Of a DNA stretch of 64,000 bases, positions 44,135 through 47,059 are shown piece by piece; the stretch's first letter is position 1, and each line of letters opens with the position of its first letter. The DNA is from Platanthera guangdongensis (lineage: Eukaryota > Streptophyta > Magnoliopsida > Asparagales > Orchidaceae). Location of the stretch: contig CM077159.1 in the NCBI GenBank assembly GCA_039583875.1, positions 456,812-520,811 on the forward strand, given 5' to 3'. The translations under genes and the position numbers were made by a program. The notes beneath the pieces are model-generated. The model searched no databases. It saw only the letters and a program-made list of their open reading frames with translations, and was not told where the DNA came from.

Positions 44135-47020
44135 CCCTCCTACTTCCGATCGCTTATACAACTTTGACTCACCCGTTTCTAACCAAGACAACGGCGTGCG
44201 ACATCTTCTACCATATAGGGCCTCGAAAGGCGCCATCTGAATACTTGCTTGGTAGCTGTTGTTGTATGCGAACTCCACCAAATAAAGGTGGTCCTCCCAT
44301 TGCTTTCCAAAGTCCAAGACACACATGCGAAGCATGTCTTCCATCGTTCTATTGACCCTCTCGGTCTGCCCATCCGTTTGTGGATGGAAGGCTGTGCTAA
44401 ACTTCAGCTTTGTTCCCAACATTTGCTGCACCAGCCTCCAATCATTGGACGTGAACCGCCCATCACGGTCACTCACGATGCTGCGGGGCACACCATGAAG
44501 CCGTACTATGTTATCCACATATAGCTTTGCCAGCTTCTCCACCGGATCATCCTTCCTATGCGGAATAAAATGCGACACCTTCGTTAATCGATCCACGACC
44601 ACCCAAATGGCGTCGTTCCCCTTTTGCGACCTTGGCAAACCATGCACAAAGTCCATAGAGATGTCGTCAAATTTCCACTCCGGAATAGGCAAGGACTTAA
44701 GAAATCCTCCCGGCTTTTGGCACTCCGCCTTTACCAAGGCGCAGGTTTGGCATTTCGCTACATATAGCGCCACATCCTTTTTCAAGCCCGGCCACCAAAA
44801 CAGTTTCTTTACATCGCGGTACATCTTCGTGCTCCCTGGGTGAATCGAGTACTTGGTATGGTGTGCCTCGTACAACAACTCCACCCGTAAATTGCCCACA
44901 CTTGGGACGCACAAACGACCGTCTTTCCACAGCAATCCGTCCTCCACGACGAATTGGGAATTTGACCCATCCAGAGCCTCTATCATGAACTGCTTCATAT
45001 GAGCATCCATATCCAAAGCCTGCCGAATCCGATCAGCCAGGTCATATTGGACTTCAGTCCAATTCAGCACTGCTTCAGCGCTAGATTGTCTATCCACACA
45101 AACAATCTCCAACGCCTCCAGCTCCTGCACCAACCGCTCATCATGCACTGATAGCCAATTCGCTTGAGCTGGGGCTCGACGACTCAACGCGTCCGCAACC
45201 GCATTCCCTTTGCCAGGCACGTAGTGGATCTTGAATGTATAGTCCCCTAAGAACTCCATCCATCTACGCTGCCGCATATTCAGATCCTTCTGATCAATCA
45301 GGTACTTTAGGCTCTTGTGATCGGTGTAGATATCAATCTTCACACCGTACAAATAGTGTCTCCACAGCTTCAAGGCAAAAATCACGGCCGCTAACTCCAA
45401 GTCATGGACCGGATAATTCCTCTCGTGCACTTTTAGCTGTCTCGAGCCATAAGCTATCACGCTTCCGTGCTGCAGTAGCACACAACCCAAACCGCTGCCT
45501 GAAGCATCGCTATATATCTCATAGCCTTCGGTCCCAACCGGCGAACTCAACACAGGCGCCGTGGTCAACCGACACTTCAATTCCTCAAAAGCTCGCGCGC
45601 ACTCCGGCGTCCAAACGAACTTATGCTCCTTCCTCGTCAAAGTAGTGAGAGGTAGCGCTATCCGCGAGAAGTTCTCTACGAAGCGCCTATAATAACCGGC
45701 AAGCCCCAAAAAGCTCCGGACTTCTGCTACCGTAGCAAGCTCAGGCCACTCCCGTATCGCAACAATCTTCGCCGGATCCACCGCAATACCCTCTCCACTC
45801 ACTATATGCCCGAGGAACGCTACTGAGGATAGCCAAAACTCGCACTTCGAGAACTTGGCATACAACTGGTTTCTCCTTAGCGTCTCCAACACCAAATGAA
45901 GATGCTTGAAGTGATCTTCCTCACTTTGCGAGTACACCAAAATATCGTCGATGAAGACGATCACGAAATGGTCTAGGTACTCCCTGAACGTCCTGTTCAT
46001 CAAATCCATAAATACTGACGGCGCATTAGTCAGCCCAAACGGCATGACCGTAAACTCATAATGCCCGTATCTCGTACTAAACGCTGTCTTCGGGATATCA
46101 CTCTCCCTTATCCGCAGCTGATAGTACCCAGACTTGAGATCTAACTTCGAGTACACCGTCGACCCGACTAACTGATCAAAGAGATCATCAATCCTAGGGA
46201 TCGGGTACTTATTCTTCTCAGTCAGCTTGTTTAGCTCCCGATAATCAATACACAATCTCAAGCTTCCGTCCTTCTTCTTAACAAAGAGGACCGGTGCGCT
46301 CCAAGGCGAAGAACTCGGGCGCACATACCCTTGCTCCAACAACTCTTGCAGTTGAACTTTCAGCTCCGCCATTTCCTTAGGCGCTAGCCGATACGGAGAT
46401 CGTGACACAGGCTTTGCACCTGGCACTAGCTCGATCGTAAAGTCTATCTCCCGTTGAGGCGGGGCTCCAGGAAGATCTGCGGGGAACACATCAGGGTATT
46501 CCGATACCACTGAAATACAATCCATCGCGGGCTTCGGCTTTGCAACCTCCACTAGTGTAAAGAACAGTTCTGCTCCGGCACGAACCGCCTTCACCACCTG
46601 AAGAGCAGACATCAACGTCTTGCTCGACCCCTTTAAGCCCGTAAAAGTCGTCTCACGACTCGCTCCCAGCTTGACTTCCTTGCTACCGCAATCTATATGG
46701 GCCTGCTGCTCCGAGAGCCAGTCCATGCCAAATATGACGTCAAACTCCACTAACGGAAGTAAAGACGCCCGCAGGTCGAACTCCTGCTCTCCAATACGAG
46801 TCTTAACCTCGCAGATCCTAACCGCTCGCATCGAACACCCATTGGGCAATAACACATCCAACTTGTCCTTCGCCATCGAAGAAGGGACTCCGATGCGTGA
46901 TATAAATCCTTCGGACAAGAAGGAGTGTGAAGCTCCCGTATCAAAGAGTGCTCGTGCGGGATTTTCACAAATCATTACAAATCCTAAACAAGCAGTGGTA
47001 AGGTAACATATACATAACAA
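44063..47020 (-). CDS. pol: Chromovirus G pol: protease, RT, RNase H, integrase
   Basis: A 985-codon open frame. Protease has FDTGAS (Asp 27). RT runs about 180-400 with LDLKSGYYQ (Asp 294) and FIDD (356-359). RNase H has Asp 505, Glu 542 and YTDH (566). Integrase has the zinc ligands His 720, His 728, Cys 757 and Cys 760, and a DD35E triad at Asp 790, Asp 851 and Glu 887. All catalytic residues are present. The last 20 or so codons are out of frame after 44137. The ATG at 47020 lies inside the proposed intron, so translation probably enters from gag by splicing rather than starting here. Confidence 0.92.
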   Translation of the reverse strand: MLCICYLTTACLGFVMICENPARALFDTGASHSFLSEGFISRIGVPSSMAKDKLDVLLPNGCSMRAVRICEVKTRIGEQEFDLRASLLPLVEFDVIFGMDWLSEQQAHIDCGSKEVKLGASRETTFTGLKGSSKTLMSALQVVKAVRAGAELFFTLVEVAKPKPAMDCISVVSEYPDVFPADLPGAPPQREIDFTIELVPGAKPVSRSPYRLAPKEMAELKVQLQELLEQGYVRPSSSPWSAPVLFVKKKDGSLRLCIDYRELNKLTEKNKYPIPRIDDLFDQLVGSTVYSKLDLKSGYYQLRIRESDIPKTAFSTRYGHYEFTVMPFGLTNAPSVFMDLMNRTFREYLDHFVIVFIDDILVYSQSEEDHFKHLHLVLETLRRNQLYAKFSKCEFWLSSVAFLGHIVSGEGIAVDPAKIVAIREWPELATVAEVRSFLGLAGYYRRFVENFSRIALPLTTLTRKEHKFVWTPECARAFEELKCRLTTAPVLSSPVGTEGYEIYSDASGSGLGCVLLQHGSVIAYGSRQLKVHERNYPVHDLELAAVIFALKLWRHYLYGVKIDIYTDHKSLKYLIDQKDLNMRQRRWMEFLGDYTFKIHYVPGKGNAVADALSRRAPAQANWLSVHDERLVQELEALEIVCVDRQSSAEAVLNWTEVQYDLADRIRQALDMDAHMKQFMIEALDGSNSQFVVEDGLLWKDGRLCVPSVGNLRVELLYEAHHTKYSIHPGSTKMYRDVKKLFWWPGLKKDVALYVAKCQTCALVKAECQKPGGFLKSLPIPEWKFDDISMDFVHGLPRSQKGNDAIWVVVDRLTKVSHFIPHRKDDPVEKLAKLYVDNIVRLHGVPRSIVSDRDGRFTSNDWRLVQQMLGTKLKFSTAFHPQTDGQTERVNRTMEDMLRMCVLDFGKQWEDHLYLVEFAYNNSYQASIQMAPFEALYGRRCRTPLSWLETGESKLYKRSEVGGCYFFGENHSGEVTHRSGPASKVL

Positions 47021-47059
47021 GCATATAAAGGAATTGACTTGCTATAAATTAAACCGTAC
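46984..47059 (-). other. Candidate 76-nt GT-AG intron between gag and pol of G
   Basis: On the minus strand the donor is ACAG/GTACGG at 47060/47059 and the acceptor TTGTTTAG/GATT at 46984/46983. The segment is about 68 percent AU, against near-balanced flanks. It contains the gag stop TAA (47049-47051). Removing it joins gag codon Gly (first base 47060) to pol bases 46983-46982 as GGA, in frame with pol, just before the protease. Retention gives Gag only; splicing would give Gag-Pol. Confidence 0.7.

What the first reader, a model, noticed from the sequence alone, without database searches (positions are those of the whole stretch)
46984..47059. A 76-nt intron may set the Gag to Gag-Pol ratio of a chromovirus
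The gap between gag and pol of element G has a good donor (ACAG/GTACGG), a good acceptor (TTGTTTAG/G), about 68 percent AU, and a length near the plant minimum. It contains the gag stop. Removing exactly this segment joins the two frames at a glycine codon without shift, just before the protease. Unspliced RNA would give Gag only and spliced RNA Gag-Pol. Ogre elements have an intron elsewhere in pol, but I know of no such gag-protease intron in Tekay-type chromoviruses.
Basis: partly seen in the sequence, partly recalled or inferred. Interest (0 to 1): 0.86.

Follow-up and report, generated by a model that had tools for sequence, protein, structure and literature searches.

The report
Conserved intron splits chromovirus gag, pol
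A jumping gene of a wild orchid carries a tiny, long-conserved intron with a stop signal between its capsid gene and its enzyme genes, so that unspliced RNA should make only capsid protein and spliced RNA should make the enzymes too.

Summary
On the minus strand, 47059-46984 is a 76-nt, 68% AT, GT...AG segment carrying the gag stop. Its flanks join in frame where 76 of 76 comparable relatives are continuous. Against the window, 48 further copies keep GT, TAG and a CTTAC region while interior and length drift; both exons look selected. Five of five fetched copies of a second subfamily have a 75-nt intron at the same place, with a different interior. Intronless copies are scattered among intron-bearing ones. 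One (L039) is nested among them, matches them up to the junction, and has its own LTR ends and target-site duplication, as a reverse-transcribed spliced RNA would. Frameshifting and readthrough do not fit the frames. RNA was not examined, so partial splicing and Gag:Gag-Pol control are inferred. It works like the Ogre intron, in another lineage and place; I found no such chromovirus intron in the literature searched.

The parts
46984..47059 (-). 76-nt intron between gag and protease; contains the gag stop
   Evidence: compared in 49 copies
47054..47063 (-). 5' splice site ACAG|GTACGG
   Evidence: GTAC unchanged in 48 of 48 other copies, all of them sampled in ways that favour an intact donor side
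46983..46996 (-). 3' splice site ACTGCTTGTTTAG|G
   Evidence: TAG unchanged in 48 of 48 copies, of which 40 were sampled without regard to this side
46998..47002 (-). branch-point-like CTTAC within a conserved CCTTACCACT
   Evidence: 0.3 changed copies per position against 4.87 in the interior; the branch-point role is inferred
47049..47051 (-). gag stop codon TAA inside the intron
   Evidence: a gag-frame stop lies inside the intron in 49 of 49 aligned copies
47049..47771 (-). 3' part of gag (Retrotrans_gag, CCHC zinc knuckle), ending DVVTGTV*
47641..48123 (-). 5' part of gag in another frame; this copy has a frame break near 47.79 kb
44063..47020 (-). pol frame: protease, RT, RNase H, integrase; homology begins just after the intron (46983)
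43576..44124 (-). end of integrase, SH3-like domain and weak chromodomain, in another frame (frame break near 44.14 kb)
48431..50737 (-). 5' LTR (2307 bp, TG..CA)
41234..43540 (-). 3' LTR, 99.7% identical to the 5' LTR (7 mismatches in 2307)
48418..48427 (-). primer binding site TGGTATCAGA (initiator-tRNA-Met type, label recalled)
43541..43554 (-). polypurine tract AAGAGGGGGAGAGT
41229..41233 (.). target-site duplication CATGA, left
50738..50742 (.). target-site duplication CATGA, right

Best explanation
The segment is a working spliceosomal intron of a Tekay-like Ty3 chromovirus family in Platanthera. Unspliced RNA meets a stop at intron bases 9-11 and gives Gag alone (DVVTGTV*); it is also the RNA that is usually packaged and copied. 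Splicing removes the stop and the frame difference and gives a continuous Gag-Pol. Incomplete splicing would keep Gag in excess over Pol. Shown from DNA: the anatomy; splice sites, branch-like motif and gag-frame stop kept while the interior drifts; the same intron position in a second subfamily; intronless copies scattered among intron-bearing ones, one with its own LTR ends and target-site duplication; intron-bearing places outnumbering exact intronless ones about 110-120 to 1. Inferred: that splicing happens and is partial in the plant, that the ratio of RNAs sets the Gag:Gag-Pol ratio, and that unspliced RNA is preferred for packaging.
For: Coding homology of relatives runs across the junction: of 78 listed relatives with the protease motif, 76 reach far enough upstream; 72 have G at the exact offset and 4 have another residue there, without a gap by eye. 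A Platanthera zijinensis Gag-only gene model ends DVVTGTV like this copy, and the next gene model by number, on a contig of the same length, is Pol-only. In the own genome the 150 scored matches to that Gag end all include the two intron-encoded residues, and 52 have an open frame of exactly 384 aa. In 48 copies compared with the window: GTAC 0 changes, TAG 0, CCTTACCACT 0.3 changed copies per position, interior 4.87, exons 3.46; third codon positions 8.85 against 0.55 and 1.41 on the gag side and 5.94 against 1.83 and 2.12 on the pol side. Genome counts at up to 3 mismatches in 30: donor junction 11,421, acceptor junction 12,235, intronless junction 103, backwards controls 0. Intronless L039 is sister to intron-bearing L004 (93.4/99) inside a 99.8/100 clade otherwise intron-bearing, on about 3 kb; it has 0 of 120 differences within 60 nt of the junction against 3 for the nearest intronless copy, and 10 against 50 in 1200; it has its own LTR ends and CTGCT on both sides. 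Eight disjoint clades with bootstrap of 95 or more hold both states. Five of five fetched copies of a second subfamily have a 75-nt intron at the same position.
Against: No RNA was examined. Sampling: donor-side conservation is biased (40 copies were found with a query ending in the intron-encoded residues, 8 were picked as identical over 241 bp), and the intronless copies were found with queries or a pattern running straight through the junction, so imprecise deletions would have been missed and their exactness is partly selected. Intron state follows the exon tree only a little better than chance (24 changes against 29.9 +/- 2.5 in shuffles, minimum 23), and many inner nodes are weak, so template switching between co-packaged RNAs may also have moved the intron. 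Within 120 nt of the junction, of nine intronless copies in the supported mixed clades, five are nearer to their intron-bearing sister than to any other intronless copy and four (L050, L052, L053, L055) are nearer to an intronless copy. On the 1.6-kb tree the L039-L004 pair itself is unsupported (6.2/29), though L039 stays inside a 90.8/97 clade otherwise all intron-bearing. Intronless copies with frames up to 1530 aa exist, so the intron is not strictly needed for a copy to be made. One of five introns in the second subfamily (L133) lacks an in-frame gag stop.
Confidence: 0.87

Rival explanations
1. The segment is a passive insertion or decayed spacer. The family is dead, or Pol is made from intronless copies in trans, and GT...AG is chance.
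For: This copy is itself broken in gag and integrase; intronless copies with long open frames exist.
Against: Acceptor and branch-like motif are among the best kept bases, both exons show an excess of third-position changes, matching places number about 12,000, the LTRs are 99.7% identical, and a second subfamily keeps an intron there with a different interior.
Confidence: 0.05
2. Pol is expressed by ribosomal frameshifting or stop readthrough across the gap, not by splicing.
For: [quoted passage not shown]
Against: The open gag and pol frames do not overlap: gag stops at 47051 and the pol frame has a stop at 47044, so neither a single +1 shift nor readthrough reaches pol. Intron indels (lengths 75-78) would change the frame relation between copies.
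Confidence: 0.03
3. Pol is translated from its own start codon by re-initiation or an internal entry site, and the AT-rich gap is a translation element.
For: The first pol-frame AUG is at 46975, just after the gap; one P. zijinensis element has separate Gag and Pol models; four of five second-subfamily copies also have methionine there.
Against: Three out-of-frame AUGs precede it in the gap. The methionine is not general: of 48 readable intronless copies, 3 read FVMI and most read FVLI, and P. zijinensis relatives read FVLI, FVVI or FFLI. It does not explain intronless copies that lack just this segment.
Confidence: 0.04
4. The interspersed intronless copies come from recombination with old intronless lineages during reverse transcription rather than from copying of spliced RNA.
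For: Intron state is close to random on the exon tree, a ten-copy outgroup is all intronless (that sample was drawn with an intronless query), and for four of nine intronless copies the close flanks are nearer to another intronless copy.
Against: L039 and L021 match intron-bearing sisters better than any intronless copy in the 240 nt around the junction (1 against 7, 2 against 6 differences), although within 30 nt both are tied. Even if true, it leaves the intron reading untouched.
Confidence: 0.25

Closest known systems
Ogre (Tat lineage, non-chromovirus Ty3) intron
   Same: An intron between two ORFs; [quoted passage not shown] a primary Ogre paper was not held).
   Different: [quoted passage not shown] here it lies between GAG and PROT, is 75-78 nt, and the element is a chromovirus-type Ty3 of another lineage.
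BARE1 and EVD (Ty1/copia) splicing
   Same: Splicing separates Gag from Gag-Pol expression; BARE1's facultative intron is 104 nt (passages read).
   Different: The logic is reversed: there the unspliced RNA is one Gag-Pol ORF and splicing makes a Gag-only RNA; here unspliced RNA gives Gag and splicing gives Gag-Pol.
Bianca (Ty1/copia)
   Same: Two ORFs separated by a short region (average 172 bp; passage).
   Different: Copia superfamily; the passage read reports no splicing for it.
CRR (Ty3) spliced transcripts
   Same: A Ty3 element with spliced RNA (one sentence in the BARE paper; that CRR is the rice centromeric chromovirus is recalled).
   Different: That splicing removes rt and creates two ORFs; it is not a gag-protease intron.
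Related elements of other plants with a continuous gag-protease frame
   Same: Same VVTG|protease junction.
   Different: No interruption in the predicted proteins seen.

Membership tests
Tekay clade of chromoviruses | Ty3 domain order protease, RT, RNase H, integrase | tested here: met
   Pfam matches in that order; the rve integrase match is just under its cut-off (29.6 against 32.6 bits), the H2C2 match is over it
Tekay clade of chromoviruses | chromodomain at the end of integrase | tested here: inconclusive
   PF00385 at E 0.00098, 19.4 bits, under the cut-off of 25.1
Tekay clade of chromoviruses | long LTRs, 5-bp target-site duplication | tested here: met
   2307-bp LTRs, CATGA on both sides; beet Tekay members have 5-bp duplications and LTRs of about 2.6-3.0 kb, one of 1.0 kb carrying a footnote (passage)
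Tekay clade of chromoviruses | place in an RT/integrase tree with reference Tekay elements | not tested
U2-type spliceosomal intron | GT...AG ends with conserved sites and free interior | tested here: met
   with the donor-side sampling bias stated
U2-type spliceosomal intron | exact removal leaving the reading frame | tested here: met
   genomic traces only: 50 of 50 aligned intronless copies lack it exactly, but they were found with through-junction queries; L039 is nested and has its own duplication
U2-type spliceosomal intron | spliced RNA observed | not testable with these tools
   no RNA reads available
Ogre-type retrotransposon intron | lies between protease and RT in a Tat-lineage element | tested here: not met
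   lies before the protease; the element ends integrase with an SH3-like domain and a weak chromodomain match
Programmed frameshift element | overlapping open gag and pol frames | tested here: not met
   stops at 47051 (gag frame) and 47044 (pol frame)

The most novel reading that the evidence does not exclude
The intron is a long-kept switch that sorts the element's RNA between two jobs. Unspliced RNA is Gag messenger and genome; spliced RNA is Gag-Pol messenger and is largely kept out of replication. Intronless copies made when spliced RNA slips through (roughly 1 per 110-120 intron-bearing places at matched stringency) mostly die out, which keeps the intron in different subfamilies and at least two species.
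Probability: 0.5. Interest if true: 0.85.

Novelty: new variant of a known kind. Interest (0 to 1): 0.76.

Why it matters
Most plant LTR elements are described as a single Gag-Pol ORF (passages), and how they get an excess of Gag is a standing question. Here is a very abundant Ty3 family (thousands of copies in one 4.2-Gb genome) whose anatomy answers it by splicing, in a lineage where I found no such report. The genome also holds a natural record: at least some intronless copies mark events in which spliced RNA was copied, so leakage of messenger RNA into replication could be counted from DNA. An intron that persists in an RNA-copied element, which should erase introns, implies selection or sorting of RNAs. 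Both are testable with existing RNA data.

Tried and rejected
Frameshift, readthrough and internal start: rejected from frame maps and from the AUG not being general. tRNA-like segment (76 nt): no tRNA found and no Rfam match. Other copies of the segment in the window: only short chance-like matches. Relatives in viral contigs and in the prokaryote genome collection: none confirmed. A profile search for short Gag-end fragments gave zinc-knuckle proteins and distant plant elements in the 120 of 189 listed and was not used further. A second Tekay-like copy in the window (6150-8130) is truncated and does not reach the junction. L020 is a rearranged, probably mosaic intronless copy and is not counted as evidence of precise loss.

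Rows dropped before counts: of 139 listed proteins 61 lacked the protease motif searched for and were not counted, and 2 of the 78 others were too short upstream. In one search, ten intronless loci that were second fetches of the same place (L009, L010, L012, L015, L016, L017, L022, L024, L031, L035) were removed, leaving 99 rows; L069-L088 are shorter fetches used only, where 20 of 20 carry the intron. In one search, 2 of 50 intronless rows lacked the motif used to read the junction. Genome searches list only the best-scored candidates: 40 of 849, 150 of 105,876, 150 of 44,477, 150 of 108,694 (208 matches, not all printed). From I fetched five loci that showed both halves. From I fetched none. 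The 384-aa count rests on the 150 frame lengths that I copied by hand into the script.

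Full report
What is there. The element reads on the minus strand. It has 2307-bp LTRs (48431-50737 and 41234-43540) with 7 mismatches and a perfect CATGA duplication. It has a TGGTATCAGA primer site and a polypurine tract. At the Platanthera substitution rate quoted in the genome paper, read as per year although the paper prints per Ma, the LTR difference corresponds to about 0.1 million years (my arithmetic). Pfam finds gag, a CCHC knuckle, protease, RT, RNase H, integrase, an SH3-like domain and a weak chromodomain. The copy is broken: a frame break in gag near 47.79 kb and one in integrase near 44.14 kb, relative to a Platanthera zijinensis protein.

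The segment 47059-46984 (-). It is 76 nt, 68.4% AT and 44.7% T, against 48.5% AT and 24% T on average in other windows of the coding region; none of 4319 reaches it. The borders are ACAG|GTACGG and GCTTGTTTAG|G. The gag frame ends inside it (...DVVTGTV*). The pol frame has stops at 47065 and 47044, so no single frameshift or readthrough connects the two.

Relatives in protein databases. The closest by identity are predicted proteins of Platanthera zijinensis and P. guangdongensis, from MAKER gene models built on de novo, homology and RNA-seq evidence (paper passages). Joined models read DVVTGFV.I...ALFDTGASHSF and close variants, which is what the two flanks of the segment encode. Of 78 listed relatives with the protease motif, 76 had enough sequence upstream: 72 have the glycine at the exact offset and 4 have another residue there, with no gap by eye. 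Whether the joined Platanthera models come from intronless DNA or from a predicted splice cannot be seen in the proteins. One P. zijinensis model (KSP39_PZI007980) is Gag-only and ends DVVTGTV; KSP39_PZI007981, the next number and on a contig of the same length, is Pol-only.

The own genome. After many busy answers the window's assembly could be searched: 4.246 Gb in 274 contigs. The 241-bp junction query returned 40 of 40 scored matches at 100%. A Gag end including the two intron-encoded residues returned 150 scored matches, all full-length, 52 with an open frame of exactly 384 aa. A protein query running straight through the junction returned 150 scored, continuous, intronless matches, some with stops, with frames up to 1530 aa. 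These lists are capped and each query favours its own form. Pattern counts are whole: at up to 3 mismatches in 30 bases, donor junction 11,421, acceptor junction 12,235, intronless junction 103, and 0 for the reversed controls. Intron-bearing places therefore outnumber exact intronless ones about 110-120 to 1 near this subfamily. The patterns were built from this copy's own alleles.

Conservation. In 48 further intron-bearing copies compared with the window, GTAC and TAG never change. CCTTACCACT changes in 0.3 copies per position, the interior (bases 9-55) in 4.87, and the exons within 200 nt in 3.46. Length is 75-78 nt, changed in 11 of 48; the 200-nt exon stretches changed length in 1 (gag side) and 5 (pol side) of 48. 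A gag-frame stop lies in the intron in 49 of 49. Third codon positions change several times more often than first and second on both sides. The unspliced Gag tail is DVVTGTV in 39 of 49, DVVTGTI in 7, and DVVTGTL or a slightly longer tail in 3. Forty of the 48 were found with a query ending in the intron-encoded residues, which biases the donor side; the other 8 were picked as identical to the window over 241 bp and add little.

A second subfamily. The P0007-type query (P0007 Gag is 58% identical to this element's) gave both continuous and split matches. Five loci with both halves, L131-L135, all have a 75-nt, 64-67% AT intron at the same position. Ends are GTACG or GTATG ... CAG or TAG. The interior of the one aligned is largely unlike the window's intron. 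Four of five keep a gag-frame stop inside; L133 does not. The intron is therefore older than the split of these subfamilies, and older than the split of the two Platanthera species, unless it was gained twice or exchanged.

Traces of splicing. In the exon-only tree of 99 copies (49 with, 50 without intron; midpoint root), a ten-copy outgroup is intronless. The earliest branches of the remaining 89 are all intron-bearing. The 40 intronless ones fall in 31 groups, 24 of them single copies, the largest of 4. Eight disjoint clades with bootstrap of 95 or more contain both states. In the 3-kb tree L039 (intronless) pairs with L004 (intron-bearing) at 93.4/99 within a 99.8/100 clade otherwise intron-bearing. 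In the 1.6-kb tree that pair is unsupported, but L039 stays inside a 90.8/97 clade of otherwise intron-bearing copies. Within 60, 120, 250 and 600 nt of the junction L039 differs from its nearest intron-bearing kin by 0, 1, 3 and 10 bases, and from the nearest intronless copy by 3, 7, 16 and 50. It has its own LTR ends and a CTGCT duplication on both sides, so it is a separate insertion; the simplest cause of the missing intron is reverse transcription of a spliced RNA. A very short exchange tract at the junction cannot be excluded, since L040 and L041 are identical to it within 30 nt. Among the nine intronless copies of the supported mixed clades, five are nearer to their intron-bearing sister within 120 nt than to any other intronless copy, and four are not. 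Overall the intron state is only slightly clustered on the tree (24 changes, shuffles 29.9 +/- 2.5). The intronless sample was drawn with through-junction queries, so inexact losses would not have been seen.

Mechanism. Shown from DNA: a conserved GT-AG intron with a gag stop, kept in a recently active family with both exons looking selected. Inferred: unspliced RNA gives Gag and serves as the genome; spliced RNA gives Gag-Pol; partial splicing keeps Gag in excess. The donor departs from the plant consensus at two positions (recalled consensus; 7 of 9), which would suit partial splicing, but that is a guess. The large excess of intron-bearing places fits unspliced RNA being the usual replication template.

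What is known. Neumann 2019 (passages read) states that most groups of plant LTR elements encode the polyprotein in a single ORF, that some have two, that Ogre and Bianca have two ORFs separated by about 274 and 172 bp, and that the Ogre region is an intron spliced from a subset of transcripts. BARE1 and EVD use splicing the other way round (passages). A 2025 review names Ogre and EVADE as notable exceptions to generally intronless plant LTR elements (passages). A paper on orchid Ty3 elements describes a single Gag-Pol ORF in its own Tat-family element and mentions the intron only for Ogre (passages). My searches found no report of a gag-protease intron in a chromovirus; for the papers not opened I saw listings only. 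So it works like the Ogre intron but is not an Ogre element: a new variant of a known kind.

Noticed in passing
window 627-60556: Large direct repeats recur at mostly 10.58-kb spacing (about 0.6, 16.4, 27.0, 37.6 and 56.9 kb) with Ty3 RT fragments between them on the minus strand: apparently a tandem array of another Ty3 family sharing LTRs, into which the element described here has inserted.
   Followed up: partly
window 6150-8130: A second, truncated and frame-broken Tekay-like pol copy on the plus strand, about 51-74% identical in protein by piece; it does not reach the gag-protease junction.
   Followed up: partly
window 58475-59615: A tandem duplication with 841-base spacing within one copy of the repeated LTR-like unit.
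   Followed up: no
window 43130-43474 and 50327-50671: Internal tandem repeats of about 102 bases within the LTRs (shifted self-matches); purpose unknown.
   Followed up: no
L085: An intron-bearing copy in which homology stops a few bases after the 3' splice site and continues into what looks like LTR start sequence, perhaps a deletion or a recombinant.
   Followed up: no
L009-L038 and other places: Intronless copies, some with single Gag-Pol frames of up to 1530 aa; such copies would lack this route to a Gag-only product and may depend on intron-bearing kin for Gag.
   Followed up: no
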